Below, in pieces: positions 25,835 to 38,902 of a stretch of 39,947 nt of DNA. The notes beneath the pieces are model-generated. The model searched no databases, was not told where the DNA came from, and saw only the letters and a list, made by a program, of their open reading frames with translations. Origin of the DNA: a virus; the IMG/VR virus record IMGVR_UViG_3300027659_000080, positions 1 through 39,947 of that record; one strand, given 5' to 3'. The position numbers were made by a program, and so were the translations under genes. Each line of letters starts with the position of its first letter. The first letter of the stretch is position 1.

Positions 25835-26717
25835 GATGACCCTCCTGTGAGTCGTTTTCGGCTTGTCAGTGCGACTCGCCGAAGGCGAGTCTAGGCACGC
25901 CCACAACCCAAACACAACACCACATATGGCATTACAGAAACTTTTTTGGCTGGAGCCCGCAAACCCTTACGCCCCAAGGCTCCGAGCCCTGTCGGAGAAC
26001 GGAATCTGCGCAAGCCGAGAACATGACCCTTCACTACCAAGGGAATCACCTGAGAGGACACTAGGAGAGCCATAGAGGGCGATAGATAGCAGTTGGGTAT
26101 CAGAGTGCCATATCGGATGTCGTGCCCCCTACGGGGCGTACACAGCGTCTGACAGGGTCGGTGCGGCAACGATGTCGGGAAACCCTTGCGGTGTATGGCT
26201 CGTAGCAATGCTGGCAGGGGCGTGGATGGCGTAGGTGCTGGGGTGGTACCGCCACATCCCCCCAATCACAACCTGTAGCCCCAAAATTAGGCTGACCTAA
26301 CACGCCCCATCTACTACTCCGTGATTCTGTTCTATCCCTTGCACTGCATGGCTTTGCGGGACATTACACGAACTTTCGCACGCCCTGAGAGGGCACAGAA
26401 ATGCACCTGCGCCCACTGACAGCCCAAAGCACCCATCGCCCCCCATACGCCCGTACAGCGTGTCTGATGGAGAGAGCAGGTCATGGGGAGAAAAGCAACC
26501 TCTGCGTGCAGATTCTTTGGTGTGAAGAATGTCACAGGGGTGGGGAGGTTGTGGTTTGCTCAGGATGGCGGTATAGGCGACCCCCCCATGGTTAAGTTGC
26601 GCAAAAAAACGGAGGGGGGTGCAGCACCCACTCCTCAGTGCCATGCAAAATGGCGTAATAGCCCTATTCTATAAAATAATTCTCAACGGGTTCACAGAAA
26701 ATCGCTCCAAATAGCCC
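25835..26717. other. 0.9-kb gene-free segment, partly related to the one at 23.1-24.2 kb
   Basis: No convincing gene. It carries + strand 13-bp motifs at 25930-25942 (CATTACAGAAACT) and 26362-26374 (CATTACACGAACT), a third palindrome at 26286-26301, and diverged copies of blocks also found on the other side of the helicase: AACCCTTACGCCCCAAGG (25962-25979, compare 24009-24026), GGGTAT...GTGCCCCCTACG (26095-26133, compare 23922-23960) and CGTACACAGCGTCTGAC (26137-26153, compare 23741-23757). Near its right end AATAGCCCTAT occurs twice (26657 and 26711). Its function is not known. Confidence 0.55.
26286..26301. repeat. Third copy of the 16-bp palindrome (TTAGGCTGACCTAA core)
   Basis: Same arms as 23587 and 23800 except the first base. 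It lies on the far side of the helicase gene from the other two. Confidence 0.5.
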
Positions 26718-26729
26718 TATACTAGGTAA
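26718..26729 (+). promoter_or_regulatory. Leaderless -10 promoter (TATACT, 6 nt before ATG)
   Basis: TATACT at 26718-26723, then AGGTAA, then the ATG at 26730. No good -35 at normal spacing and no ribosome-binding site. Confidence 0.7.
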
Positions 26730-27137
26730 ATGAGCCTTTCCAACCATCAATTCGGTGACCTGATACCAAAGTTGGAACAAAGACATGGAGATGATTTCCA
26801 TGACTCAGTGACCGCATTTGCCCTAGGAACGCCTAGTGACCCCATGGCGGAGTCCTCCTCATCCTACGACCTACCTATCAGCCGTGCAAGAGTCCCTCTG
26901 AGTGCCCTACCAGACCATGGAACTAGTAGTGCTGCCCGTATCGGTCGTGCGCAAGAGGGATATCGGACCTCCCCATCCTCAGTGCCCCCTATTCTCCTAG
27001 TACAGAGAGCAGGAGGGTATGACATTGCTGATGGTCACCATCGTGTACAAGCCGCTAGGAACCTCGGTAGAGAGCATATCCCTGCTTGGGTGGTGCACAG
27101 CCCTCTAAAAGAGCCTCACCCTGGCTTTGACGACTGA
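26730..27137 (+). CDS. ParB-like (ParB/Srx fold) protein
   Basis: A 135-residue protein. ISRARVPLSALP (50-61), PPILLVQRAGGYDIADGHHRVQAARNLGREHIPAWVV (86-122) is a ParB N-terminal domain: strand, then the D-G-H-H-R motif (101-105) and helix, then a strand. In ParB the equivalent GxxR motif binds CTP; many phage versions are nucleases or regulators. There is no helix-turn-helix DNA-binding domain, so it is not a full partition protein. Leaderless transcript likely. A second ParB-like protein lies at 28803. Confidence 0.8.
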   Translation: MSLSNHQFGDLIPKLEQRHGDDFHDSVTAFALGTPSDPMAESSSSYDLPISRARVPLSALPDHGTSSAARIGRAQEGYRTSPSSVPPILLVQRAGGYDIADGHHRVQAARNLGREHIPAWVVHSPLKEPHPGFDD

Positions 27138-27139
27138 CC

Positions 27140-27151
27140 TATACTAGATAA
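27140..27151 (+). promoter_or_regulatory. Leaderless -10 promoter (TATACT, 6 nt before ATG)
   Basis: TATACT at 27140-27145, AGATAA, ATG at 27152; same layout as 26718. Confidence 0.7.
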
Positions 27152-27493
27152 ATGGAAGAAATAACAGACCCCTCCTTTAAACAAACCACCTGTGATGGGT
27201 GTGGTCTACCCATCCGTTCGGCATCATTTGACCTTGTATCGGACATGATTCGGTATGAGAACCCTACATCAGGTGGTCTTGTTTCGTCAATGGCTCATGG
27301 ACTACCTAAACCCGTCAAGCGTCAGGTAAACGAATGGTTGCATGATGACCCTCGTGCCTCCAATGACCACCGCCCATACCCTGCTGCCTATGGTGAACGC
27401 CATACGCATGACTCTGACTATGAACGACAAGAACGAGAATGGCGTATGTCTGAGATGGAAAAGCGTTCACACCTAGGCGAGCAGTTCCAGTAA
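27152..27493 (+). CDS. Unknown 113-residue protein with one CxxC
   Basis: Starts MEEITDPSFKQTTCDGCGLPI; CDGC at 14-17 looks like half of a zinc site but a second pair is missing, so metal binding is uncertain. The rest is polar, with an Arg/Glu-rich C-terminal helix (YERQEREWRMSEMEKRSH). It is read from its own leaderless promoter. Function unknown. Confidence 0.65.
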   Translation: MEEITDPSFKQTTCDGCGLPIRSASFDLVSDMIRYENPTSGGLVSSMAHGLPKPVKRQVNEWLHDDPRASNDHRPYPAAYGERHTHDSDYERQEREWRMSEMEKRSHLGEQFQ

Positions 27494-27502
27494 ACTAGGT
27501 AT
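27491..27502 (+). promoter_or_regulatory. Leaderless -10 promoter (TAAACT, 6 nt before ATG)
   Basis: TAAACT at 27491-27496, AGGTAT, ATG at 27503. The TAAACT also contains the TAA stop of the preceding gene. Confidence 0.7.
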
Positions 27503-28147
27503 ATGCCTGAACTGAATGCCAACATCCCACCGATTAGTTGTTTTGTAAGAGGTAACTTCCTTACCAACCAAAAGAATGGTCACGACCTCAAGTTCCCAGT
27601 CATTGTCTTTGGTGTTGCTTCTATCACTGACAGGGCACCAGTGTTTCATTTCCTCATGGAAGATGGCGGAATTTGGTGGAGAGCCCCTATCAATGCCTTC
27701 TGCATGGACGAAGACAGCCCTGTTGTAGAAATCTACGACCTTGTTATGTGGAATTGTTTCTCTCCATACATCACTGTCACTACTTTTGAGCATATGCGTG
27801 GACGTTCTATGTCATATATTGACCGTCACAAGAAAAATGTGGACGGAAAGTACATGTTTACCCTTGACTGGCACCATCCAGACAACAACATTGCAGATAC
27901 AAACTACTCAATTGACTCTGCCAACCACAAATGTGGTCATGTCATCCTACGAGAAGACGGAAACTTTGCTATTCAGCCCAATAACCGTGTGCATCTCTGG
28001 GACCCATCGCATACGACCAAGAAAGGTGTCCATTTGATTGACCGTGAGGTCAGTGACATCGTCTGGGGTGTGGAAGACGGTAGCAAATGGCTCACATCTG
28101 ATGATTCTAGTTACAACTATGACGTAAAAATAGTTGACAAGTCATAG
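27503..28147 (+). CDS. Unknown 214-residue protein
   Basis: A mostly beta protein with hydrophobic strands (KFPVIVFGVASITDRAPVFHFLMEDGGIWWRAPI) and a later pattern KYMFTLDWHHPDNN...HKCGHVILREDGNFAIQPNNRVHLWDPS. The sequence style recalls an uncharacterised family seen in aquatic phages, but I cannot name it. The C-terminal 50 residues are hydrophilic. Leaderless promoter; the next gene begins 12 bases after the stop. Confidence 0.7.
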   Translation: MPELNANIPPISCFVRGNFLTNQKNGHDLKFPVIVFGVASITDRAPVFHFLMEDGGIWWRAPINAFCMDEDSPVVEIYDLVMWNCFSPYITVTTFEHMRGRSMSYIDRHKKNVDGKYMFTLDWHHPDNNIADTNYSIDSANHKCGHVILREDGNFAIQPNNRVHLWDPSHTTKKGVHLIDREVSDIVWGVEDGSKWLTSDDSSYNYDVKIVDKS

Positions 28148-28159
28148 TAAACTAGATAT
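28148..28159 (+). promoter_or_regulatory. Leaderless -10 promoter (TAAACT, 6 nt before ATG)
   Basis: TAAACT at 28148-28153, AGATAT, ATG at 28160. Confidence 0.7.
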
Positions 28160-28429
28160 ATGAGTCGTCCCGATGGTCCACAGTTCCGTAAAGTAGGTAA
28201 TCATAAGATGTACCGACACAATACAGGCAGTTGGGAGACCGTAGACAACTATCACTTCCAACAAGGGTCCCCTCCCACTAACCTATGGAATGTCCATGAC
28301 CTACGAGACCCTGATGCATGGGAGCCAGTGTTTGAAACACAGCACGGTAGTCTAAAAAGTGCTCATTCTGAGTTTAGAAGGTACCATCCTGAGCGTGATG
28401 CGGGCGACAAACCGCTACTTGAGCACTAA
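28160..28429 (+). CDS. Unknown 89-residue protein
   Basis: Starts MSRPDGPQFRKVGNHKMYRHN; polar, rich in His, Asp and Arg, with no hydrophobic segment. Its stop overlaps the next ATG (TAATG), so it is co-translated with the ART-like gene. No domain recognised; it could be a partner or antidote of that protein, which is speculation. Confidence 0.6.
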   Translation: MSRPDGPQFRKVGNHKMYRHNTGSWETVDNYHFQQGSPPTNLWNVHDLRDPDAWEPVFETQHGSLKSAHSEFRRYHPERDAGDKPLLEH

Positions 28430-28800
28430 TGCCAGTACCTGAAGGACAACAGTTCATCACGCTATACCGTGGATTGCAGGGAGTACAGCCCCATCGTGTA
28501 AACCATCGCAGTATGGGAGACATCTGGACCAGTAGTTATGGCGTTGCTCATAGATATGCCTCTGGTCAAGCAGACGACAACACCAAAAACTCTACTTTTG
28601 GAACAATTGTTAGAGCATCCGTACCAGTCCATGCGATTAAAGAAGATGATACAGGCGATGATTTGAAAGAATACCGTCTACATCCTGGTTCTGAGGTAGA
28701 AGTAAGTAGCAAAGAGTTTGTACAACAGCGTGGTGAGAGTAAAAGACACTCTGTTCCTGACGATTATTGGAAAAAGTACCCAATGAAGGGTACAATTTAG
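28429..28800 (+). CDS. ADP-ribosyltransferase-like (ART-fold) protein
   Basis: A 123-residue protein with the R-S-E layout of the ART fold: LYRG with R14, IWTSSYGVAHRYA (T34, S35, S36; STS-like), a strand TIVRASVPVHAI, and SEVEVS (E89 and E91, the ExE motif). This matches NAD-dependent mono-ADP-ribosyltransferases such as phage and toxin ARTs. If active it would modify a host protein. The protein is short, so it may be a single minimal domain. Related ART-like sequences lie at 29331 and 38099. Confidence 0.65.
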   Translation: MPVPEGQQFITLYRGLQGVQPHRVNHRSMGDIWTSSYGVAHRYASGQADDNTKNSTFGTIVRASVPVHAIKEDDTGDDLKEYRLHPGSEVEVSSKEFVQQRGESKRHSVPDDYWKKYPMKGTI

Positions 28801-28802
28801 TA

Positions 28803-29276
28803 ATGCTGCCATTACACCTTGAAGAACAGAAATTCAAAAAGAGTTTAAAGTCAGGTCGTTTTTATGGCACTGAAATGTGGGGAGAAGAGCGCAATGTCAA
28901 TGTAAGAGCAATGGGTAGGCTTTCCAGCCCTCAATTTACAATGCTTATGCGTCCATCTGATTATTCTAATTCATGGTTAGACATGGATGTACCAGTTCCT
29001 CATGTCCCTGGTCATGTGCGCCATCAACCTTTTGATGCAGACCACCCTGAGTACCAAGAGTTAGAGCAACGAATCATGAAAGAGGGTGTGCGTAGACCAG
29101 TCATCGTTGGACAGAAGCAGAATATGTACAACCCTGACATTCACCTTGACCCAAACAAAATAACTGTGCGACCTGCTTACCCTGTCATGGATGGTCACCA
29201 TCGTGCGTTCTTTGCTATCAAACATGGTTTACATATCCCTGTAGTACAGTTTGTAAGCCAAAGAGGGAATTACTAA
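28803..29276 (+). CDS. ParB-like (ParB/Srx fold) protein
   Basis: A 157-residue protein; ATG at 28803 overlaps nothing and follows the preceding TAG by two bases. Residues 88-150: LEQRIMKEGVRRPVIVGQK, then ITVRPAYPVMDGHHRAFFAIKHGLHIPVVQF with the motif D-G-H-H-R (130-134). It resembles the protein at 26730 but is divergent. The N-terminal half is of unknown fold. No helix-turn-helix is present. Confidence 0.75.
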   Translation: MLPLHLEEQKFKKSLKSGRFYGTEMWGEERNVNVRAMGRLSSPQFTMLMRPSDYSNSWLDMDVPVPHVPGHVRHQPFDADHPEYQELEQRIMKEGVRRPVIVGQKQNMYNPDIHLDPNKITVRPAYPVMDGHHRAFFAIKHGLHIPVVQFVSQRGNY

Positions 29277-29292
29277 AAAATTTCTGGTGGGG

Positions 29293-29304
29293 TAAACTAG
29301 TTAT
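29293..29304 (+). promoter_or_regulatory. Leaderless -10 promoter (TAAACT, 6 nt before ATG)
   Basis: TAAACT at 29293-29298, AGTTAT, ATG at 29305. That ATG opens a seven-codon micro-ORF, not the main gene. Confidence 0.65.
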
Positions 29305-29328
29305 ATGTGTGCAATGGAAAAAGGTTAA
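29305..29328 (+). CDS. Leaderless seven-residue micro-ORF
   Basis: ATG at 29305 reads MCAMEKG and stops at TAA 29326-29328, two bases before the ATG of the next gene. It covers the AAAAGG ribosome-binding site of that gene, so its translation could set the rate of the main gene (leader-peptide style coupling). It may be a by-product of the leaderless promoter. Confidence 0.45.
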   Translation: MCAMEKG

Positions 29329-29330
29329 GT

Positions 29331-29858
29331 ATGGCTCGTGGTGCTTGGCGTGACCCTAGTAGAGAGACAACACCTCTTGGCTCGTCCCCTATTCATATTT
29401 CTGACCGAGGCAGTTATGGTGAAAACAGAAGGCAAGCAACAAAAGGCTGGCACGTTGCCTTACGAGTAAGTCGTGAATCAATTGAAAAGAATGGCATTGA
29501 CCATAAAATCATTGGTAGTGGTGGTACAAGTGTCTTTAGCGACAACCGTGACCAATTTGGGCGTAGGCCACGACAAGGTAACTACTTTTTCCTACATCAG
29601 GAAGATGCCTTAGATTTTGCTCAACCAGGCATCCATGACATTTGGGAAATAGATATCCCAGAAAAACGTCAGCACATGTTCTTCCATGACCGTGGTCTTG
29701 GGCCAAACTACTCTGGGCAATCCCCTCGTAAAATACCAAAGAAGTCGTTAACTCTTTTACATCTAGAGGGTCCCCCAAGCCCAGAGGCTTCTGAGAAATT
29801 CAGTAAAAAAATTAACTACGTGAGTAGACTATTGAACAATGGTCAGTTCAACGACTGA
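29331..29858 (+). CDS. Unknown protein, possibly ART-fold
   Basis: A 175-residue protein starting MARGAWRDPSRE, which begins like the M-x-R-G family at 4.5-5.7 kb. I chose this ATG over an upstream GTG (29307) because a ribosome-binding site is present. The middle reads WHVALRVSRESIEKNGIDHKII, then GNYFFLHQEDALDFAQ and IWEIDIP, a plan like KptA/ART-type domains (strand, helix, x-x-G-I turn, aromatic-rich strand, helix). No certain catalytic triad, so this is a low-confidence fold call. Confidence 0.6.
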   Translation: MARGAWRDPSRETTPLGSSPIHISDRGSYGENRRQATKGWHVALRVSRESIEKNGIDHKIIGSGGTSVFSDNRDQFGRRPRQGNYFFLHQEDALDFAQPGIHDIWEIDIPEKRQHMFFHDRGLGPNYSGQSPRKIPKKSLTLLHLEGPPSPEASEKFSKKINYVSRLLNNGQFND

Positions 29859-29867
29859 GTAATAAAG

Positions 29868-29879
29868 TAAACTAAATAG
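29868..29879 (+). promoter_or_regulatory. Leaderless -10 promoter (TAAACT, 6 nt before ATG)
   Basis: TAAACT at 29868-29873, AAATAG, ATG at 29880. Confidence 0.65.
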
Positions 29880-30584
29880 ATGAGCGATTTAAGAGTTACA
29901 GATGTTCAGGCTGCATTGCGGCATTTTGCTGGTCTTGGGCATGATGTACTCACAGACCCACGTGCTGTCCATCTTACAAATCATCCTGATGAAGAACCTA
30001 AACCATACAGAATGGCAGCAGGACATAGTTTAAGTTTTGATGGTACGGGCATGCAGGTAGGCGGTTTAACGTCATATGTTATGCAATCTGAACGACCATT
30101 AATTTCTTATGTAGCAACACATATTCAACCCAATTGGCATGGCAGAAGGGTTGCGCCATTAGTACCTACAATGCAACGTGAGCGGATGGTGGCTCTTGGT
30201 GCCACGGGAGATGATAAATATCATCAATTTACCTGGGATACTACACATAACTCATCTTCAGGTCCTGGTTACCACGATAGTATGACTGGCTCAAAAGGGT
30301 CATCTGTTTTTCTTAATGATGGACGAAACGATATTCATGAGGCTTTAAAAGCGCATACAACAAAGGCTGTATCACATACAGGTGCAAGATACTTGTCTGA
30401 GGAGAGAAAGCAACCTATGACACCTGAGGAAATGTCTAACTTTGATGTTCCACATGCAATGTTGTCTATGTTGGAAGGTGCCCAACCTTTTAAAGGTATT
30501 ATCACTGTGCGACAAGGTTTAGGCAATATTTACCATTACAACCCCGATACAGAAGAATTGCGGACGCACCTTGTCAGACCTTAG
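29880..30584 (+). CDS. Unknown protein, first of four tandem paralogues
   Basis: A 234-residue protein starting MSDLRVTDVQAALRHFAGLGHDVLTD. The N-terminal 40 residues are repeated in the next two genes and, more distantly, in a third. It has a C-terminal pattern FKGIITVRQGLGNIYHYNPDTEEL shared with the paralogues (VHVVHGDHGDTNHYIYNPATEEM). A conserved middle (NDIHEALKAHTT) also recurs. The N-terminal helices look like a small helical or HTH-like module; function unknown. Leaderless start. Confidence 0.8.
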   Translation: MSDLRVTDVQAALRHFAGLGHDVLTDPRAVHLTNHPDEEPKPYRMAAGHSLSFDGTGMQVGGLTSYVMQSERPLISYVATHIQPNWHGRRVAPLVPTMQRERMVALGATGDDKYHQFTWDTTHNSSSGPGYHDSMTGSKGSSVFLNDGRNDIHEALKAHTTKAVSHTGARYLSEERKQPMTPEEMSNFDVPHAMLSMLEGAQPFKGIITVRQGLGNIYHYNPDTEELRTHLVRP

Positions 30585-31290
30585 AGTAACTGATGTTCAA
30601 GCAGCCCTACGGCATTTTGCTAATAATACTGGTCACAATGTTTTAACTGATGACCCACACAACATTTTGATTGATGACAAAAAATACGGTATGGCTGTTG
30701 GGCACCGCTTAAGCATTCATAACTATGAAAAAAGTACCAGAATGGCTTCTCGTGGTGACATTCAACTTTCATCTTTTATTCAGCAAGCAGAATCACATAT
30801 TATTTCAGAGGTAAACAGCGCTCATTCTTTTGCACGCCCTGATGAGAAGGAATTCCCATGGGTAAGGTCCACAGCCCCTTTAGGGCCTTATCATGGGTTA
30901 GGTTCAACAGGTGGTCCTTATGAACATTATGCAACATTTGGTGTTCAACACCCTGATGGTCTGATGAAAGGAATGATTCATCAAATAAATAAACCAGATG
31001 GTTGGACTACTAAAAAACCCTCTAGCGTATGGGAACCACATGAAGATATTCATGAAGCATTGAAATCACATACTGATTTGCGACCAAAGTATTCCCCAGA
31101 AAAACTTAAAGGTTTTGACCACCCACTTGCTTTGGAAAGATTAATATCTGAAAAAGAAGAAAGACCTGGCGTTGCAGAGGGGTCCAACACTACCTATAAA
31201 GGACTTGTACACGTTGTTCACGGAGACCATGGTGATACAAACCACTACATCTATAACCCCGCTACAGAAGAGATGCATAGATATGGGTGA
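30571..31290 (+). CDS. Unknown protein, second of four tandem paralogues
   Basis: A 239-residue protein from a TTG start inside the end of the preceding gene. Begins MSDLRVTDVQAALRHFANNTGHNVLTD, nearly identical to its neighbour for about 18 residues. It shares the EDIHEALKSHTD segment and the C-terminal NPATEEMHR. The middle is divergent. Confidence 0.8.
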   Translation: MSDLRVTDVQAALRHFANNTGHNVLTDDPHNILIDDKKYGMAVGHRLSIHNYEKSTRMASRGDIQLSSFIQQAESHIISEVNSAHSFARPDEKEFPWVRSTAPLGPYHGLGSTGGPYEHYATFGVQHPDGLMKGMIHQINKPDGWTTKKPSSVWEPHEDIHEALKSHTDLRPKYSPEKLKGFDHPLALERLISEKEERPGVAEGSNTTYKGLVHVVHGDHGDTNHYIYNPATEEMHRYG

Positions 31291-31993
31291 CCTTAGAGTA
31301 ACCGATGTACAAAAAATTATTCGTAAGCATGCTGATGTAGGTCACGACATTACACAAAGTCCACAGCATGTACATTTGGATAATAAGCCTTATGGGATGG
31401 TTGTAAACCACCACTTACAACTTAACCACGGTTCTTATGGTGGTGATGATGCAAGCATTTTGAATACATACTTGACGCAGGCAGAAAGACCCTTAGTAAG
31501 TAAACTACAAACAATGTTACGTGGTAGCACCGTTGCAGGCACTGGCAATAGATTTCGTCCTGAGCGAGGTGTAACACCCTACGGTAGGCACCAGTTTAAT
31601 TCTAAAGAACTTAGTGACTATGGGTATGATGACTTACATTATATAAATGGTAATCATTCCACATGGGTGGGAGACCATGGTGAGTGGCAAAATGAAAACG
31701 GATTATGGGTACCCCACGGTTTTTCAAAGTACAAAGATTCGCATGAAGCCCTACAATCACATACTTCAGCAGAAGTTCCACATGATGGAGTTGTGCACAA
31801 TGAGGAATACGACTCTCGTGAAATGACACCTGAAGAACATTCTGCTTTCAATAACACTGAAGCATTACATAACCTTACAGGATTAAAACCATTTTCTGGA
31901 TTAGTAAACGTATTACATGTTCCTAAGGATAGTCCTAAGGTTTCTTACACTTACAACCCACAGACAGAGGAACTGCACCGCCATGGCGATTAA
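31283..31993 (+). CDS. Unknown protein, third of four tandem paralogues
   Basis: A 236-residue protein. I chose the ATG at 31283 (not an upstream in-frame one at 31172) because it aligns with the paralogues: MGDLRVTDVQKIIRKHADVGHDIT. Shared elements: KDSHEALQSHTS and the end SYTYNPQTEELHRHGD. It overlaps the previous gene by 8 bases. Confidence 0.8.
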   Translation: MGDLRVTDVQKIIRKHADVGHDITQSPQHVHLDNKPYGMVVNHHLQLNHGSYGGDDASILNTYLTQAERPLVSKLQTMLRGSTVAGTGNRFRPERGVTPYGRHQFNSKELSDYGYDDLHYINGNHSTWVGDHGEWQNENGLWVPHGFSKYKDSHEALQSHTSAEVPHDGVVHNEEYDSREMTPEEHSAFNNTEALHNLTGLKPFSGLVNVLHVPKDSPKVSYTYNPQTEELHRHGD

Positions 31994-32732
31994 CCATAAT
32001 GATGTGTATGACTTCCTACACGGTGTTAGAAAACATAATGGTATTGACCTCATCTCACAACCAAAGATGGTAAACATACATGGTAGGACATACCCCACTA
32101 TTGGTAATAATCTGTCAATAGACAATGTGGATGGTTGGGGAGATTTATATATTCATATTCCCCATGAAAATGGTTATCTAACAGAGATGCATGTGTTTAA
32201 CCCAAACACTAACCCAAAACCTACCAAACTTGAACATCCTAATCACGTAACCGTAAATGATGTCGTTCCAGGTACACGTAAAACCCAAAGTGGTTTAATA
32301 CGACCTACTTTTAACTTTGGAACAAAAGGTGTAAATAGGACAGGTCCTTATAGCATGGATACGGCTGGGAACCTTGAACATACCTCAACTAAGGACACAA
32401 CTCATATTCACAAATTTCTTGAACATATTTCTGGGTTGCCATCTCCTCAAGGTGAAGCACTTAACATGTATGGTCGTGAAGGAAATGGTCCAATCCCAAG
32501 AGACAAAATGCATGCTGTTGATTTAGCAGAAAGCGTTGGTCATCTGCGTGAGTTACACATAGGTATAACCATGCCGAAAGGCACTGAACATCATTTAGCC
32601 ATTGCAGACATCAATGCACGAGTAAACGGTCCTCCTCGCCAAGGCGACAAGGAATACCTATATGATATTGGCTCAGAGTCTTTAACAGGGGTTCCAAAAG
32701 AAATGCGCACAAAATTCGGAGATGTTGGTTAA
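31983..32732 (+). CDS. Unknown protein, fourth and most divergent tandem paralogue
   Basis: A 249-residue protein starting MAINHNDVYDFLHGVRKHNGIDLIS, recognisably related to VTDVQxxLRHF...GHDVLTD. It keeps a Gly-x-N-x-L-S-I strand (TIGNNLSIDN; compare AVGHRLSIHN in the second copy) and the end EYLYDIGSESLTG corresponds to HYIYNPATEEM. Overlaps the third copy by 11 bases. Function unknown. Confidence 0.75.
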   Translation: MAINHNDVYDFLHGVRKHNGIDLISQPKMVNIHGRTYPTIGNNLSIDNVDGWGDLYIHIPHENGYLTEMHVFNPNTNPKPTKLEHPNHVTVNDVVPGTRKTQSGLIRPTFNFGTKGVNRTGPYSMDTAGNLEHTSTKDTTHIHKFLEHISGLPSPQGEALNMYGREGNGPIPRDKMHAVDLAESVGHLRELHIGITMPKGTEHHLAIADINARVNGPPRQGDKEYLYDIGSESLTGVPKEMRTKFGDVG

Positions 32733-32905
32733 TGCCTACTTATCAATACAAATGCCCAAATGACCACTACTACGAAGAAGAGCGGTCTATTACATCACAT
32801 GAGCCTATTCTCATCTGTACCTCTTGTTCAGAGGAGATGAAGAAGGTATTTAGCGTTCCTGCGCTCAACCTTGTCGGTAGGGGCTTCTACCGCAACGGCG
32901 GATAG
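32732..32905 (+). CDS. FmdB-type zinc-ribbon protein
   Basis: A 57-residue protein. MPTYQYKCPNDHYYEEERSI, then ICTSCSEEMKKVFSVPAL and GFYRNGG is the FmdB/CxxC zinc-ribbon pattern: one Cys pair partly replaced (C8 and H12) and CxxC at 29-32. FmdB-like ribbons are common in actinobacteria and their phages. It overlaps the preceding stop (TAATG). Confidence 0.75.
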   Translation: MPTYQYKCPNDHYYEEERSITSHEPILICTSCSEEMKKVFSVPALNLVGRGFYRNGG

Positions 32906-32917
32906 TATAATAGTTCT
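32906..32917 (+). promoter_or_regulatory. Leaderless -10 promoter (TATAAT, 6 nt before ATG)
   Basis: TATAAT at 32906-32911, AGTTCT, ATG at 32918. The consensus -10 box is found at the same spacing as the weaker TAAACT versions. Confidence 0.75.
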
Positions 32918-33148
32918 ATGAAACAAATAATTCTTCGTATTTGTGCCACTTTTGCGGCTACTGGTCTTTCTGTAGTCGGAGCGGGCGCTATTGCTGGTAT
33001 TCCCCTTTGGAAGGCTATGCTGATGGCTGGTATCAGTGGGGTAAGTTTTGTTGTTGAAGGTCTTGCACGAGCATACATGGATGATGGTAAATTAACAATC
33101 AATGAGATTAATGATGTTTTCAACAAAGTTGATAAGAAAGCAAAGTAA
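32918..33148 (+). CDS. Small membrane protein, holin-like
   Basis: A 76-residue protein with two hydrophobic segments: residues 4-27 (IILRICATFAATGLSVVGAGAI) and about 30-48 (LWKAMLMAGISGVSFVVEG), then a short charged tail with DDGKLTINEINDVFNKVDKK, which resembles an EF-hand-like acidic loop and helix. Small two-pass membrane proteins with charged tails in actinophages often serve as holins; the Rpf-like lysin is far away, so pairing is not shown. Confidence 0.65.
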   Translation: MKQIILRICATFAATGLSVVGAGAIAGIPLWKAMLMAGISGVSFVVEGLARAYMDDGKLTINEINDVFNKVDKKAK

Positions 33149-33300
33149 TGGCAACTTCTAAACATTGGAGCGACCCTGAAGAAGATGCATACACAGACGA
33201 TGAGGGTAACATCTTGTATTACGATAAACAAGGCAAATTGCGAAAGTTTAAAGCAACTGCTGTTGAATACCAGCAAATGTACCACTATGGAGATGACTAA
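33148..33300 (+). CDS. 50-residue acidic protein
   Basis: Starts MATSKHWSDPEEDAYTDDEG, overlaps the preceding TAA and the next ATG (TAATG on both sides). Acidic and aromatic (NILYYDKQGKLRKF; YQQMYHYGDD). Function unknown; it is co-translated with its neighbours. Confidence 0.6.
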   Translation: MATSKHWSDPEEDAYTDDEGNILYYDKQGKLRKFKATAVEYQQMYHYGDD

Positions 33301-33626
33301 TGGCTAGGAACAAAGGGATTGACCCAGACGGTGATGGTCCTGGATTTAGGGATGATGACTCCCACTTCCAGTTAAGTGGGGATGAAGCACAAGATTACGC
33401 CATAAAAAAGGCAAATGCTAAACCAAGGAAAAAGCGACCACCTAGTGCAAAAGCAATTGCTCGTGGTCTTAGGGCTCAACAGCACATGAACGCAACACAG
33501 TTTCGTGAACCCGAAGACCGTGGTCCTAGACCTGGCTATGTACCACCTGCGCCTGGAGAACCAGGTGGTCCACTATTGCCTAAAGAAAAACCTAAAGAGG
33601 ATACAGAACCTCCTAAAGAGGATTAA
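33300..33626 (+). CDS. Unknown charged, disordered protein
   Basis: A 108-residue protein starting MARNKGIDPDGDGPG. Basic middle (KPRKKRPPSAKAIARGLRAQQHMNA) and a Pro/Glu-rich tail (PKEKPKEDTEPPKED). Mostly low complexity and likely disordered. It ends before the reverse-strand operon; the two stops are about 10 bases apart. Confidence 0.6.
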   Translation: MARNKGIDPDGDGPGFRDDDSHFQLSGDEAQDYAIKKANAKPRKKRPPSAKAIARGLRAQQHMNATQFREPEDRGPRPGYVPPAPGEPGGPLLPKEKPKEDTEPPKED

Positions 33627-33635
33627 TACACCCCA

Positions 33636-34505
33636 TTACCAAAACTTTAGTACTGAGCGCCTAATGCCTTCTTCTAAAGATACTTTAGGAGTATAAAAAC
33701 TTAGCATCTTAGAAGAATCAGAGCAACGGTAAGCAACACCTTCGGGAGCATCAGTCTTGTGCTCATAGGTAGTTGTATAACCTACTTCTTTGCACACTAA
33801 CTCTGCCAGTTCATTGAACGTAGTAGGTCTACCTAATCCAAGGTTTACAGGTCCAGGTACATCAAGTTCTACAGCCTTGATAGTAGCGGCAACTACATCC
33901 TCAATATGGATAAAATCACGCACTTGCTTACCAGTACCCCAAATAAAAAAAGGGTCATAATGATGCACGCCACGGTGGATAAAAGACGGGAATGGGTAGG
34001 TTAGGTCTTGGTCTTCCCCGTACCCTGAGAATGGGCGAAACACATGAACCCGAAGACCTTCCTGCTCTGCATACTTTGCAAGGATTTCTCCTGTTAACTT
34101 AGCCCAACCATACGTAAGGTCTGGTAAACGCACGTTATCTAGGTCAATGTCATCCTCTACAAGTTTGTGCTCGCTACCGTAACCTTGAAGGTCAATAGGG
34201 TATGCCGCAGAAGACGAGTAGTACACAACATGGTCTGGTTTGGTACGTAATGCCCATTGGAACATATCGGAGTCAATAGCAAGGTCAGTAGCGACTTTTA
34301 AAGGGTTTCCTTCAATAGTTGCCCTACCCCCAACAATTGCGGCTAAATGAATAACTAAATCAAATTTAGTATTGTCTTCAGCAAAGAACTTACGAGCATC
34401 TAAACCATTAACAATGTCAACACACGTAATGTCATTGCCATTGTCTAATTGTCGGTGAAACTCACGACCAACAAAACCAGCATCTCCAGTAATTAAAATT
34501 TTCAT
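33636..34505 (-). CDS. NAD-dependent sugar epimerase/dehydratase (extended SDR)
   Basis: A 289-residue protein; start at 34505 by ATGA overlap with the upstream gene. NAD-binding motif ITGDAGFVGREF (about 4-15), HLAAIVGGRATI, catalytic YGWAKLTGE (Tyr-x-x-x-Lys) and FRPFSGYGEDQ. It resembles UDP-glucose 4-epimerase/GDP-fucose synthase-type enzymes. The third gene of a reverse-strand glycan operon. The exact sugar substrate cannot be read from sequence. Confidence 0.85.
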   Translation of the reverse strand: MKILITGDAGFVGREFHRQLDNGNDITCVDIVNGLDARKFFAEDNTKFDLVIHLAAIVGGRATIEGNPLKVATDLAIDSDMFQWALRTKPDHVVYYSSSAAYPIDLQGYGSEHKLVEDDIDLDNVRLPDLTYGWAKLTGEILAKYAEQEGLRVHVFRPFSGYGEDQDLTYPFPSFIHRGVHHYDPFFIWGTGKQVRDFIHIEDVVAATIKAVELDVPGPVNLGLGRPTTFNELAELVCKEVGYTTTYEHKTDAPEGVAYRCSDSSKMLSFYTPKVSLEEGIRRSVLKFW

Positions 34506-35059
34506 TTGCATCCCCAAATTCCATATGTATAAGTTTCATTAAACACAGTGCTATCTAACATTACAAACACATTAGACTCCCAACCTGCTTTTGTCAAGAG
34601 TTCTTCTACACCTTCACGGTCCCATGCCCAATAATGCTCTTTATTGGTGTCTTCCCATGCATTAATTGGTGTAGTTAAAATAAGACATTCTGCTTTTTCC
34701 CTCATCTGTTGTAACGCAGGCACAGGCTTATCTAGGTGCTCAAGTGTCTCTGAACAAATAAACAATGATACGTATGGTATTTTCTTGATAGTTTCCTCAA
34801 CTGGGCCTGTGTGTTCATAACCCTCTGCATAGTCACCCAAAATAGTTGGTAAGTCCAAGTATTTAGCAATTGCTGCGTTACCGCAACTTAAATCAGCCAC
34901 TACTGTGGCTTGTACTTCTCGTGCCATGTCTTTGGCAATAGTCTGTGTAATCTCAACACGTAACCCATGCCCACGACCATAAAGACCATGGTCATGTGGT
35001 TCAGGGTAAAGTTTGTCAAGAAACTCTTGAGAGTGTTTTGGGCGCAGTCTTTTAATCAC
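34502..35059 (-). CDS. Class I SAM-dependent methyltransferase
   Basis: A protein of about 185 residues. VVADLSCGNAAIAKYL is the glycine-poor but recognisable SAM-binding motif I; motif II/III is SLFICSETLEHLDKP followed by AECLILTTPIN, as in small-molecule or sugar methyltransferases. The GTG at 35059 overlaps the preceding stop; TTG at 35065 is an alternative. In this operon it probably methylates a sugar. Confidence 0.8.
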   Translation of the reverse strand: MIKRLRPKHSQEFLDKLYPEPHDHGLYGRGHGLRVEITQTIAKDMAREVQATVVADLSCGNAAIAKYLDLPTILGDYAEGYEHTGPVEETIKKIPYVSLFICSETLEHLDKPVPALQQMREKAECLILTTPINAWEDTNKEHYWAWDREGVEELLTKAGWESNVFVMLDSTVFNETYTYGIWGCK

Positions 35060-35747
35060 GAACAACAGTCATATCATGACCACGAGTTTCAATTGCGCCA
35101 ATTGCCGTAGGAAAGTGGGTTGCACGAATGTCAGTACGAACATGTGTAGGAATTCCTAACAAGGTCTTTGCATCATGGTGGTAACAAGGGTCATCTGACA
35201 TACCTGTGTCAAAATCCCAACGCCAACGAATCTTTGTAAAGACCTCACGAGCAATCATAATTGCGGCTGCCGAAGCCATAGCGTCCATTACAGGAAATGG
35301 GTAGGTATCTACAACGGGACCCATTAAACCATAAGTTGAAATAAAGGGGGCTGTAAGGGGATAATGCATCTCCAACAATTTTGGCAATACATCATCTGAT
35401 GGTTGACAGTCAGCCGCTAGAAACAACAAATGTGAGCAGTTGGGGCGTGACTGAGCGTAATCCACAACAAGGTTTTGACCAACAACAATATGGCGAAGAC
35501 GGTTAGCGGTTGTGACACTTGTACGACCATCATCCAATGAGTATGTCCAGTACTCACCACCAATCTCAGCAAGTCGGTCCAGTAAAGGCTGAAAAGGCTC
35601 CAAACCACGTTTGTCTATTTGAATAGCCACAAAATAGTGTACTTCTGGGTGAGTGCTTTTTACAGCCTCAGCATTACGCATCCAAGATGCCCAAGTGTCC
35701 TCTTGGTCCATAACAAATGCAGCCATTGTGGTTCCTACAACAATCAT
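35052..35747 (-). CDS. Glycosyltransferase, GT-A/GT2-like
   Basis: A 231-residue protein with TTAGGAG upstream of the ATG. The pattern HYFVAIQIDKRG, then RPNCSHLLFLAADCQPSDDVLPKLLEMHYPLTAPF, then a region of the type RWRWDFDTGMSDDPCYHHDA, is a GT-A layout (acidic A-D-C motif for metal and nucleotide). First gene of the reverse operon, followed by methyltransferase and epimerase. Function inferred: transfer of a modified sugar. Confidence 0.75.
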   Translation of the reverse strand: MIVVGTTMAAFVMDQEDTWASWMRNAEAVKSTHPEVHYFVAIQIDKRGLEPFQPLLDRLAEIGGEYWTYSLDDGRTSVTTANRLRHIVVGQNLVVDYAQSRPNCSHLLFLAADCQPSDDVLPKLLEMHYPLTAPFISTYGLMGPVVDTYPFPVMDAMASAAAIMIAREVFTKIRWRWDFDTGMSDDPCYHHDAKTLLGIPTHVRTDIRATHFPTAIGAIETRGHDMTVVRD

Positions 35748-35774
35748 TTATACTCCTAATAAGTCTTCTTGAGG

Positions 35775-35787
35775 TAAACTATACACT
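35775..35787 (+). promoter_or_regulatory. Leaderless -10 promoter (TAAACT, 7 nt before ATG)
   Basis: TAAACT at 35775-35780, seven bases, ATG at 35788. It overlaps a reverse-strand TATAGT -10 box. Confidence 0.6.
35779..35784 (-). promoter_or_regulatory. Reverse -10 box overlapping the forward promoter
   Basis: Read on the reverse strand, TATAGT spans 35784-35779. A start about 7 bases on gives a 25-30 nt leader with TTAGGAG before the glycosyltransferase ATG at 35747. It shares bases with the forward TAAACT, so the two promoters should compete. Confidence 0.45.
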
Positions 35788-36144
35788 ATGGCGAAAGAAC
35801 ACCTCAACTACGAACAAATGAATTTGACTCAAGCACATATTAAAGGGTTAAATGTTCATAAAGTCGTTGAAGAACTACTAACACATGTTATGAACCATAG
35901 TCCCACACCTGTAATTGGGCGTAAAACAAACGGTGGACATGTACAACTTTATTTTAAAGATGATGGACTTGTAACCCTTCCAAGCACACCTAAAGACCAA
36001 CATTCTGTTGGTAACGCTGAATCACAGATTCGTAGGTCTCTAGGTACTCATGGGTTTGAATTTCCAACCCGTGGACAAGTTAAAAAGCAGTCAAAAAAAG
36101 AAAAGAAAGAAACTACTGAAAACCCAGTAGTAGAACCAGAATGA
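35788..36144 (+). CDS. Unknown 118-residue protein
   Basis: Starts MAKEHLNYEQMNLTQAHI with helices (GLNVHKVVEELLTHVMNH), then strands (GHVQLYFKDDGLVTLPSTP) and a basic Lys-rich C terminus (KKQSKKEKKE). Possibly nucleic-acid binding from its charge and strands; no known domain. Confidence 0.65.
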   Translation: MAKEHLNYEQMNLTQAHIKGLNVHKVVEELLTHVMNHSPTPVIGRKTNGGHVQLYFKDDGLVTLPSTPKDQHSVGNAESQIRRSLGTHGFEFPTRGQVKKQSKKEKKETTENPVVEPE

Positions 36145-36296
36145 TTGTTACATACCCTATTTACACTGAGTCTTATGGGAACGCCCTCAAGTTGGCAGAG
36201 AATATGGCTAAGTCACATGGTTTTAAAACTTCTAGACTTTTAGGCATTACAAGAACTGGAAATGGTTCGTGGGATGTAAGGATGTTGGTGTCATGA
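36141..36296 (+). CDS. 51-residue alpha/beta peptide
   Basis: Starts MIVTYPIYTESYGNALKLAENM, a strand then helix, then a strand (SRLLGITRTGNGSWDVRMLV). It overlaps both neighbours (ATGA). Support is the junctions and the coherent strand-helix-strand plan. Function unknown. Confidence 0.5.
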   Translation: MIVTYPIYTESYGNALKLAENMAKSHGFKTSRLLGITRTGNGSWDVRMLVS

Positions 36297-37975
36297 CTAT
36301 TGGAAAACAGTTTGAAAATACATTTTGGCAAGACCCAGATACAAATGAAACACATGTTTGGACTAGGGGAACTCCTCAACCAAACATAACTCCTTCTGGT
36401 CGCCCTCTTCATCAAACAACAACACTCAACTCCGTTTATGGTTCGTCAAACGAAGACCTTGGTGCTGGGTCACAAGGTTTACAAGGATTGTTGTTTCATC
36501 CTTTAACTGGTACAGGCTTAAAAGGTGACTCAATGGTTCCAGATGCCATGCGTAGAGGAACCATTCAAAGGGCTTTGGACTTAACCAGCGTTGAAGGTTA
36601 CAAGAAAAACCTATCAAATATCTTGGGAAGAGTTACTAGGAGGTCTACAAAACGAAATGTTGCGCATAGGGTAGAAAGAGCCAATATCTCCGACAAAGGT
36701 GCGGAAACACACATTCGCAGGTTGACTGACACGCTGGACCAGTCAGATATGCCAACTCACATTATTGCTAAAAAAGAAACCCCCACTAAAACAGTATTAG
36801 ACCCTCTCCCAGGACGTGCTTATGCTGAATCTAGTGGTACTGCTATCCGCCTGACTACCCCACGTGATAGTAAAACTAAAACAGTTATAAGTAAAGAAAC
36901 AGTTAGTGTTCCTTCAGACACCCCTATTGGTAATCCTAAATTTTGGGACCAACTAGATTGGGCACGAAGGAGAGGTGGGGATGACCACAACTCAATATCG
37001 GCAGATGAAACTTTTGATTTAGCCACACATTGGGTACACCCAGAGACTGGTCATGTGATGACTAGGGAATACGCCCAAAACTTGCCGTATGTAAATGACC
37101 ACAATGATGCAGAAAACCCCATGCAAACCCCAGCATTGTTGTTAAGGGATTGGGGATATGTACCTAATTTATTTCCAGGTAAGGGCAATGCAGCCGCTAA
37201 ATCTCATTCAGTTGGTAAAGTTGGTAAAGTTGAAATTGGTTATGGTGACTTTGACCGTGGCGATGGGTACAATCGGGAAACTTTTCACAACAGGTTTAAA
37301 CCAGGTACCAAACAAGAGGAAAGAACTATTGTTAAGCGTGTTCGTATTGAACCAGCATTAAATGAAGAAACAATGGTACATGAATTAGGCCATGCTATGG
37401 ACCCAAAGATAGGTGAAGGTGCTACTAACCGTGGTAATTATACTTATGGGAATAAAAAACACACAGTTATAGCAGACCCCATAGAAGAAGGCGTAGCAGA
37501 TGCTTCCGCAGACCGTTATACCCGTTACAAAGGCCAATTTCAGGACACACTTGCAAATAATGAACAACGCCTAAAAGATTTTGAATCTAGTGGTTATACA
37601 ATTAATTATTCAGGATGGAAAAACAAAACACAAAGTGCTTTGTACGCAGCCACTCGTTACCATACCGCTTTGGCTGACAACATGAGTCACCCACAACAAA
37701 TGCCAAGCCGTAAGCAACTTATTGATGCTTTGCCAGAACAAGAACGTAAGGCTGTTAAAGGTACAAGACTTTTTGGCAACCCAGGTAACCAATACTTAGA
37801 TACTGCCAACAGTTTGGCTCTTGGTCATCTGTACCATCACATGCCTCATGTTCGTGGAATCTTAAAACAGGCTGGTTTAGAAGATGCTGCTCTTGAGGCT
37901 CATGCCGATTACAAAAAACGTATGGGTTTAGATGTTCAACATCCAGTATTGCCAGGGATGGAAGACTTTGTCTGA
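36293..37975 (+). CDS. Zinc metallopeptidase-like protein (HExxH)
   Basis: A 560-residue protein. The zinc-binding motif MVHELGHAMDP (H363, E364, H367) is followed 32 residues later by EEGVADA (E398/E399), which can serve as the third ligand in gluzincin-like families. The N-terminal 350 residues are polar, with Arg/Thr-rich parts and no known domain. Phage metallopeptidases of this kind often occur in proteins delivered with the DNA or in host-takeover cargo. The start at 36293 overlaps the preceding stop. Confidence 0.8.
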   Translation: MTIGKQFENTFWQDPDTNETHVWTRGTPQPNITPSGRPLHQTTTLNSVYGSSNEDLGAGSQGLQGLLFHPLTGTGLKGDSMVPDAMRRGTIQRALDLTSVEGYKKNLSNILGRVTRRSTKRNVAHRVERANISDKGAETHIRRLTDTLDQSDMPTHIIAKKETPTKTVLDPLPGRAYAESSGTAIRLTTPRDSKTKTVISKETVSVPSDTPIGNPKFWDQLDWARRRGGDDHNSISADETFDLATHWVHPETGHVMTREYAQNLPYVNDHNDAENPMQTPALLLRDWGYVPNLFPGKGNAAAKSHSVGKVGKVEIGYGDFDRGDGYNRETFHNRFKPGTKQEERTIVKRVRIEPALNEETMVHELGHAMDPKIGEGATNRGNYTYGNKKHTVIADPIEEGVADASADRYTRYKGQFQDTLANNEQRLKDFESSGYTINYSGWKNKTQSALYAATRYHTALADNMSHPQQMPSRKQLIDALPEQERKAVKGTRLFGNPGNQYLDTANSLALGHLYHHMPHVRGILKQAGLEDAALEAHADYKKRMGLDVQHPVLPGMEDFV

Positions 37976-38099
37976 TGAGAAGTCCTGTGACCTGTCTGAG
38001 CAATGTGTGTGGTGTGGCGGTCAAATGCGCCCTGAACACGCTCATTATCGGTGCGAATCTTGTGGCTCTAGGGACTCTTGTTGTGAGGGAGTTTATTGA
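37968..38099 (+). CDS. 43-residue zinc-ribbon protein
   Basis: A TTG inside the end of the metallopeptidase opens a frame with CVWCGGQMRPEHAHYRCESC, a CxxC-x12-CxxC zinc ribbon, plus two more Cys. An alternative frame from the ATG at 37975 (hydrophobic, starting MRSPVTCL) is also open, but the Cys spacing argues for this one. Its stop overlaps the next ATG. Confidence 0.6.
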   Translation: MSDEKSCDLSEQCVWCGGQMRPEHAHYRCESCGSRDSCCEGVY

Positions 38100-38788
38100 T
38101 GAGCGCCAGTGAACATGTAAGCAAGCAATTTAAAGGTCATAGCGACCCCAATGTCCATTGGTCTGAAAACTGGGCAAATAACCTTCGTGAAGCAAATGTT
38201 CGTGCTGACGATAGTCGTAGTCATATAAGTGGTTCAGTGTTTGATTCGCCAATTAATCAGTGGGTTAACTCTTCGTGGCATCAACCTGCACGATTTCCTA
38301 CAAATGCACTTCAACATCTAGACAGCCGATTGGCTGAATATGGTCATTTAGAGCATTGGGATTCAAACCCTGAAATAGCACGAAGGCAAGCAACCATACG
38401 AAAAAGACCTGATGTACAAAGAATGGATGTAAACACAGAACACCCTGAGCATTTGCATGAGCAAATGAAAGGAACAGGTGTACCAGAACATGTTACTGTC
38501 TACCATCATGGTGACATTCCTGCTAATGCTGAATATGCAAGTGGCTCAGTTGACCCAAAGTGGCCTGAAGAAGTTAAATCAGGGTGGAGAAGCAAGGACC
38601 CTTCTATTAACAGAGGGCGTTTGCACATTTATTTAGTGCCACATCAAGACATCCTCCATGGAGGGTCAGGTGTTGAAGATGAAGTATTCTTTAGGCGTGG
38701 GCAGAGTTTTAATAAAACCAAACGCAGCCAAAAACAACAAAGAATAGTTGCTACCAACTTAGAAGACCGTATGGAATATGGTGGCTAA
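38099..38788 (+). CDS. ART-fold-like protein
   Basis: A 229-residue protein with a polar N-terminal 125 residues. Then VTVYHHGDIP (133-141; His136 where ARTs have Arg), YASGS (146-150; STS-like), and a strand LHIYLVPHQDIL, GVEDEVFF with E193/E195 (ExE). This is the ART order with a changed first residue, so it may be an inactive or altered ADP-ribosyltransferase. Compare the ART-like protein at 28429. The C-terminal region is Lys/Gln-rich. Confidence 0.6.
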   Translation: MSASEHVSKQFKGHSDPNVHWSENWANNLREANVRADDSRSHISGSVFDSPINQWVNSSWHQPARFPTNALQHLDSRLAEYGHLEHWDSNPEIARRQATIRKRPDVQRMDVNTEHPEHLHEQMKGTGVPEHVTVYHHGDIPANAEYASGSVDPKWPEEVKSGWRSKDPSINRGRLHIYLVPHQDILHGGSGVEDEVFFRRGQSFNKTKRSQKQQRIVATNLEDRMEYGG

Positions 38789-38789
38789 C

Positions 38790-38830
38790 TAGTTATCCAC
38801 ATGTTTATTCACATGTGTGTATAATTATTA
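38790..38830 (+). promoter_or_regulatory. Promoter with TATAAT and two ACATGT palindromes
   Basis: ACATGT occurs twice (about 38800 and 38811), in a short inverted-repeat context, and TATAAT lies at 38820-38825 with an ATG (38831) only five bases after it. The palindromes could be an operator over the promoter. Confidence 0.5.
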
Positions 38831-38902
38831 ATGAGGTTCTTACCCACCGAGGCGGATTGCTTGCGAGCAGTCCGTCTTCGTGTCTCTGGTAAACTGTATT
38901 AA
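38831..38902 (+). CDS. 23-residue micro-ORF with an internal hairpin
   Basis: ATG at 38831, five bases after TATAAT, reads MRFLPTEADCLRAVRLRVSGKLY and stops in TAATG overlapping the next ATG. The DNA inside it forms a hairpin (GGCGGATTGCT with AGCAGTCCGTC, about 38850-38875). It may be a leader peptide or attenuator; the hairpin has no T-run. Whether it is translated is uncertain. Confidence 0.4.
   Translation: MRFLPTEADCLRAVRLRVSGKLY
38890..38901 (+). promoter_or_regulatory. Leaderless -10 promoter (TAAACT, 6 nt before ATG)
   Basis: TAAACT at 38890-38895, GTATTA, ATG at 38902. It sits at the end of the micro-ORF, giving the secreted-protein gene its own start. Confidence 0.6.

What the first reader, a model, noticed from the sequence alone, without database searches (positions are those of the whole stretch)
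29880..32732. Four tandem paralogous genes of unknown function
The starts (VTDVQAALRHFA, VTDVQAALRHFA, VTDVQKIIRKHA, HNDVYDFLHGVR), a middle DIHEALKxHT segment in the first three, and the C-terminal YNPxTEE pattern are shared, with divergent regions between. Repeated duplication of a gene of this size is unusual in compact phage genomes and hints at a variable, selected function.
Basis: seen in the sequence. Interest (0 to 1): 0.55.

Follow-up and report, generated by a model that had tools for sequence, protein, structure and literature searches.

The report
Diverged tandem phage accessory genes
A phage genome fragment carries three clearly duplicated genes in a row, plus a fourth that seems to share only its beginning, in a stretch where related phages keep other duplicated and toxin-like genes; what the proteins do is not known.

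Summary
g1 (29880-30584), g2 (30571-31290, TTG start) and g3 (31283-31993) are end-to-end paralogues (29-35% identity, E 8e-17 to 3e-30). g4 (31983-32732) lacks the DIHEALK and YNPxTEE segments and resembles them only over its first ~45 residues (0 of 5000 shuffles score as high). The four frames overlap stop-to-start. No Pfam, PHROG, NCBIfam, PADLOC, PDB-sequence or fold match is convincing.

Copy number varies: 3 in the window, 3, 2 and 1 in three other viral contigs, 0 in 27 other records searched whole (many are fragments). The window's copies are not a recent local expansion: g3 groups with two copies of another phage (support 100/99). Ends are conserved, middles diverge, dN<dS, and gene blocks are mosaic. 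The genes sit in an accessory island with ParB-like, ART-like, GNAT and zincin-like genes, next to virion genes in a 94.9 kb sheath-encoding relative. A second, unrelated tandem family occupies the island of other phages, so duplication is not peculiar to this gene.

Best reading (0.42): accessory proteins, probably made late, that bind host or competitor targets, with a constant N-terminal module and a variable body. Function is inferred only. New member of a known kind.

The parts
29867..29874 (+). GTAAACTA, a -10-like motif 5 nt before the g1 start; possible promoter of the g1-g4 unit
   Evidence: recurs 5-6 nt before several gene starts of the island; 9 sites with at most 1 mismatch in window 26701-39947, 6 of them at starts of called genes, against 0.1 in Markov shuffles and 0.45 for scrambled motifs
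29880..30584 (+). g1, 234 aa, family member
30571..31290 (+). g2, 239 aa, TTG start overlapping g1 by 14 nt, family member
31283..31993 (+). g3, 236 aa, family member; groups with two copies of L004
31983..32732 (+). g4, 249 aa; resembles the family only over the N-terminal ~45 residues; missing at this place in L004, where identity to the window resumes at window 32725
29866..29923 (+). 58-nt block identical to the start of the first copy in L004 (14 nt upstream + 44 nt coding), after which the two genes diverge
29292..29866 (+). 575-nt block with gene 29307-29858 (not of this family), between two GTAAACTA copies; missing at this place in L004

Best explanation
g1-g3 (and, by its N-terminus, g4) are accessory proteins of a phage of actinobacteria, probably made late in infection from one polycistronic unit, that act on host (or competing-phage) molecules rather than build the virion. 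Each has a constant N-terminal module of about 50 residues (one helix plus the start of an antiparallel sheet) and conserved end segments, with a variable, indel-rich middle that would set the target. The phages hold several diverged copies side by side and gain, lose and recombine them, so that a phage carries several specificities at once. Shown: paralogy of three genes, constant ends and variable middle, copy-number variation, mosaic junctions, location in an island of enzyme-like accessory genes next to virion genes. Inferred: late expression, common transcription, target binding, role against host functions or defences.
For: Family and copy number. Constant N-terminus, variable middle. 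Mosaic structure: window and L004 are 92% identical over 79 nt across the g1 start and then diverge; g4 and gene 29307-29858 are present in the window and missing at the same places in L004. Between g3 and its nearest relative, dS is 0.54 and 0.44 at the two ends and 1.59 in the middle, which suggests exchange. Neighbours: ParB-like (26730-27137, PHROG E 4e-6), HELGH in 36269-37975 (read directly), PARP/ART-like (L016:7955-8266, E 0.001, below Pfam's cut-off), GNAT (L143:3226-3624, PF00583 above its cut-off), weak metallopeptidase matches (E 0.01-0.03, below cut-off). In relative G003 (94.9 kb) the island is followed by tail-fibre-like genes, terminase, portal, capsid and sheath (only terminase, by phrog_2, and sheath, by Pfam, are backed by profiles; the rest is my reading). 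The island's start-site motif also precedes a few virion-type genes. Two WhiB genes point to an actinobacterial host (whiB is used so in PMC6802176, passages read).
Against: No domain, fold or experiment shows a target or a function. g1-g4 lack the short N-terminal QF tag and the C-terminal LPGME tag that several island proteins share, so they need not share those proteins' fate. dN < dS. The start-site motif is rare before virion genes (in 37 kb of G003: 1 exact site and 4 sites in all with up to one mismatch, against 0.65 in Markov shuffles), so late timing is weakly supported.
Confidence: 0.42

Rival explanations
1. They are minor virion or tail-associated proteins (for example variable adhesins), and the duplications vary host attachment.
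For: The island lies next to tail-fibre-like genes in relatives (by my reading of the frames); the models are rich in antiparallel beta sheet.
Against: No PHROG family matches; the family is missing from 27 of the 28 records searched whole, most of them found through neighbouring genes, so it looks dispensable (many are fragments); no fold match to fibre domains at a significant score.
Confidence: 0.18
2. They are enzymes: the invariant His pair of the HEALxxHT segment with the N-terminal GH and the C-terminal Y.P.TE would form an active or metal site.
For: G20, H21, H154, H160, Y224, P226, T228 and E229 (g3 numbering) are invariant in 9 of 9 aligned copies.
Against: g4 keeps the G but not the first H; the spacing H[ED]xxxxH is not the zincin HExxH; no profile or fold match to an enzyme at a significant score; the model around the His pair has pLDDT about 73.
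Confidence: 0.15
3. They are superinfection-exclusion or immunity proteins, one copy per competitor.
For: Tandem diverged copies and mosaic exchange; a non-significant resemblance of the model to the TipC2 immunity protein (Z 3.5).
Against: Z 3.5 is within noise; I see no hydrophobic signal or membrane stretch in the sequences (read by eye, not computed).
Confidence: 0.1
4. Neutral or weakly useful duplicates kept by frequent recombination.
For: Tandem duplicates of a second family in three phages and of a HELGH-type gene in L043 in the same island; no positive selection signal.
Against: All nine copies found are full open frames, dN/dS is about 0.46 for g3 and its nearest relative, and the duplication is old or exchanged between phages.
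Confidence: 0.15

Closest known systems
T4 internal proteins (IPI, IPIII) and Alt
   Same: Accessory proteins, dispensable in some hosts, that act on host functions; IPI inhibits a restriction system and IPIII is needed in one host strain (PMC9391042, passages read); Alt is an injected ADP-ribosyltransferase (PMC5512222, passage read).
   Different: No sequence relation seen; a capsid-targeting sequence or virion packaging is not shown for g1-g4.
Phage polyvalent proteins (Iyer et al. 2017, PMC5512222; abstract, outline, one section and passages read)
   Same: Same kinds of neighbouring domains (ParB-like, ART, zincin, GNAT), and a position near late virion genes.
   Different: Here the domains are separate small genes, and g1-g4 match no domain of that set.
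Segmental amplification of anti-defence genes: tifA in T4 (PMC9391042, passages read); SegB-driven amplification (PMC13096335, search listing and start of abstract only)
   Same: Tandem copies made by recombination in a phage.
   Different: Those are recent repeats of one segment; g1-g3 are 29-35% identical proteins whose copies are older than, or exchanged across, the split from relatives.

Membership tests
The g1-g3 family itself | End-to-end match to the 9-sequence profile and to each other | tested here: met
   g1, g2, g3 at E 2e-62 to 2e-92 (they are rows of the profile, so this is expected); independent BLASTP links all three
The g1-g3 family itself | g4 matches beyond the N-terminus | tested here: not met
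   only profile columns 18-51 match
Polyvalent proteins | Several disparate domains in one polypeptide | tested here: not met
   234-249 aa, no Pfam match at E up to 1
Polyvalent proteins | Gene lies near late virion genes | tested here: met
   in relatives G003 and the L004 contig; the window itself holds no virion gene that I recognised
T4-type internal proteins | Capsid-targeting sequence, processing by prohead protease, presence in the virion | not testable with these tools
   needs virion proteomics
T4-type internal proteins | Sequence homology | tested here: inconclusive
   no PHROG match at E up to 1; direct comparison with IP proteins not run
Zincin metallopeptidases | HExxH motif at the conserved His pair | tested here: not met
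   the segment reads H[ED]xxxxH in 9 of 9 copies
Proteins of anti-phage systems in PADLOC | Profile match | tested here: inconclusive
   only BilB on g2 at E 0.03 over 28 residues

The most novel reading that the evidence does not exclude
This group of actinobacterial phages keeps a cassette island, studded with its own start-site promoters, in which unrelated small effector proteins are marked by short common end tags (N-terminal ...QF, C-terminal LPGME.F) and in which untagged families such as g1-g4 diversify as tandem arrays with a constant docking module and exchangeable bodies: a modular, single-gene counterpart of polyvalent proteins, delivered or deployed as a set.
Probability: 0.18. 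Interest if true: 0.7.

Novelty: new member of a known kind. Interest (0 to 1): 0.4.

Why it matters
The family has no convincing match in Pfam, PHROGs, NCBIfam, PADLOC or PDB sequences, and it marks a recombining accessory island in phages of actinobacteria. If the island is an arsenal of anti-host proteins, its tandem arrays are candidates for anti-defence genes, and the shared start-site motif and end tags give simple handles for finding more of them.

Tried and rejected
Phage records of GenBank: no megablast match to window 27000-37000; tblastn with g3 finds only E >= 2, with g4 nothing; g1 and g2 were not run there. A viral-contig scan with g1 alone found nothing; scans with alignments found three contigs, and one with N-termini no further one. 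A scan of genome contigs found no relative. These scans start from short peptide patterns and can miss distant relatives.

g4: phmmer against the frames of 60 loci finds only itself.

Fold: two AlphaFold2 models (g3 first, pLDDT 66.3, pTM 0.71; L016 copy first, pLDDT 66.6, pTM 0.70). Foldseek: no match at E <= 0.001 in PDB (g3 model only) or BFVD (both). VIA-align best Z 3.4 (NLP toxin fold) and 3.5 (TipC2, Rad50), within noise. The outline is a helix and an antiparallel sheet; I drew no function from it.

NCBIfam's Lnu(A) match on g3 (E 0.006, 16.6 bits against a cut-off of 300) is discarded as chance.

Idea that GTAAACTA marks preferred recombination junctions: one clean case (575-nt block), but the general test fails: where the upstream gene is homologous, the downstream gene is too in 7 of 26 pairs of motif junctions and 913 of 2607 pairs of other junctions (pairs not independent).

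Positive selection: not seen. I first took the tandem genes of L079, L143 and L016 for several families; one search shows that they are one BLAST-linked cluster.

In 'island' means the 10.5-11 kb upstream of the Thr-rich gene; in distant phages (e.g. L112, L115, L119) that stretch holds tail-type genes, so the island set is diluted.

Literature: the listings I saw for freshwater actinophages (12 of 121 listed), tandem paralogues, leaderless late promoters, the motif string (8 of 379 listed) and amplified anti-defence genes show no report of this island; the terms were narrow and most papers were not opened.

Full report
What is there. The window is a 39,947-base virus record; in the frames that I read I recognised no virion gene. 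Two WhiB genes (Pfam E 1e-11 and 9e-18) point to an actinobacterial host. At 29880-32732 four genes follow each other with stop/start overlaps of 14, 8 and 11 nt. g1, g2 and g3 are paralogues over their whole length (BLASTP 29-35% identity, E 8e-17 to 3e-30). g4 is not; only its first ~45 residues fit the family profile, in register, better than any of 5000 shuffles of itself and better than any other non-member frame among 11,414. A hhalign comparison gives P 0.0009 but a probability of 22.5%. I call the N-terminal relation of g4 likely, not proven.

Relatives. Alignment-based scans of IMG/VR found three other contigs with the family: L004 (IMGVR_UViG_3300020161_000820, 3 copies), L005 (3300008107_000496, 2 copies) and L016 (3300032233_001072, record G003, 1 copy); counts were made on the whole records. 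To ask how often phages with the same neighbourhood lack the family, I fetched 58 loci with the neighbouring small membrane-protein gene and the best 80 of 183 loci with the Thr-rich secreted-protein gene. With the window and L016 these make 140 loci, 87 after removal of near-duplicates. A family profile finds no further contig among the 140. Of 28 records searched whole, including G003, only G003 has it. Many of these records are fragments, so absence is not proof for each.

History. In a tree of the nine copies only one group is firm: g3 with L004 copies 2 and 3 (support 100/99); the window's three copies are not one clade, and the other branches are long and unresolved. So the duplication is older than the split of these phages, or copies have moved between them. 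Residues 1-52 are 33-69% identical between copies, the middle 15-45%, the end 22-69%. For g3 and L004 copy 2, dS is 0.54, 1.59 and 0.44 in the three parts and dN 0.28, 0.51 and 0.24: purifying selection, with a middle of different history. The first copies in the window and in L004 are identical over 58 nt around the start codon (14 upstream, 44 coding) and then diverge. g4 is missing at its place in L004, where identity to the window (88.7%) resumes at 32725, at the end of g4. A 575-nt block with another gene, 29292-29866, lies between two copies of GTAAACTA in the window; its outer flanks, joined, match the L004 junction at 89 of 110 bases. The array is thus mosaic. The wider idea that the motif marks the junctions failed its test (7 of 26 pairs against 913 of 2607).

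Setting. The island around the array holds a ParB-like protein (26730-27137, PHROG E 4e-6), a protein with HELGH (36269-37975, read directly), and in relatives a PARP/ART-like (E 0.001, below cut-off), a GNAT (PF00583, above cut-off) and weakly metallopeptidase-like proteins (E 0.01-0.03, below cut-off). In G003 it is followed, by my reading of the frames, by tail-fibre-like genes, terminase, portal, capsid and sheath. Terminase is backed by phrog_2 (named from memory; the same profile rings in 11 of 14 control genomes) and sheath by Pfam; the others are recognised from memory. Tandem duplication recurs here: a second family, unrelated to g1-g3 by BLAST, has three copies in L079, four in L143 and three in L016, all in one cluster with a C-terminal LPGME-type end, and L043 has a tandem pair related to the HELGH gene. 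In all, 24 of 87 loci show at least one near pair, but many of these are tail-type genes outside any accessory island.

Start-site motif. GTAAACTA stands 5-6 nt before the start of several island genes, g1 included. In window 26701-39947 there are 9 sites with at most one mismatch and a start codon 4-7 nt on, against 0.1 in Markov shuffles and 0.45 (at most 3) for scrambled motifs. Six of the nine are at starts of called genes (27503, 28160, 29307, 29880, 35788, 38902; the one at 29307 is 7 nt before a GTG, the one at 38902 has a mismatch); the other three lie inside genes or on the other strand, one of them (31500) inside g3. In window 1-26700 there are 2 sites against 0.8. Relatives show it too (with ATG 3-12 nt on: L016 7, L077 4, L033 4, L143 3, each against 0.1-0.2 in shuffles; L079 1; virion stretches L159 and L160 0). 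TAAACT fits a -10 box (recalled), with transcription starting at or next to the start codon. Of the array genes only g1 has the motif before its start; g2-g4 would be translated from the same message. The L016 copy has CTAAACTA 6 nt before its start. The motif is rare among virion genes, so it does not prove late expression.

Function. No profile or fold library gives an answer. I commit to accessory proteins acting on host or competitor molecules, with a constant module and a variable body (0.42), for reasons of position, variability and likely dispensability; each step from there to a mechanism is inference. T4 shows that phages can amplify an anti-defence gene in tandem and carry anti-host internal proteins (PMC9391042, passages read), which is a parallel and not evidence for membership.

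Verdict. Real observation, corrected from four to three plus one partial; a family without known relatives; duplication ordinary for its island. Interest 0.4.

Noticed in passing
window 27490, 28147, 29292, 29867, 35774 (exact); 38889 (one mismatch): GTAAACTA 5-7 nt before gene starts, enriched in the accessory island here and in relatives such as L016, L077 and L033: a candidate leaderless promoter of this phage group.
   Followed up: partly
window 28429, 36269, 38096; L141:9598, L079:1410, L143:2566 and others: Island proteins not linked by BLAST share a short N-terminal tag ending in QF: QF within residues 5-14 in 19 of 167 upstream-of-Thr-rich clusters and 5 of 198 others (p 0.001; 10 other dipeptides not significant); a longer pattern, chosen after seeing the data, in 15 of 167 and 0 of 198, its reverse in 3 and 4. 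g1-g4 lack it.
   Followed up: partly
window end of 36269-37975; L016:11997-14388, L143:3627-8013, L141:3859-4755: C-terminal LPGM/LE-type end on three clusters not linked by BLAST; two of the three carry HExxH, so they may be distant relatives.
   Followed up: partly
L143:3627-8013, L079:2623-5344, L016:11997-14388: A second tandem family (3-4 copies, one BLAST cluster) in the same island of other phages; the three members tested have no convincing Pfam or PHROG match.
   Followed up: partly
window 27503-28147: Protein of PHROG 3704 with matches in 112 phage records, mostly cyanophages, also pelagiphages (32-49% identity in the 20 listed).
   Followed up: no
L160:16502-17140, minus strand: Proteasome-like protein (Pfam E 3e-5, above cut-off) beside the portal-like gene of G003.
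   Followed up: no
window 35788-36144: PADLOC HicA-like match (E 0.0015), not examined.
   Followed up: no
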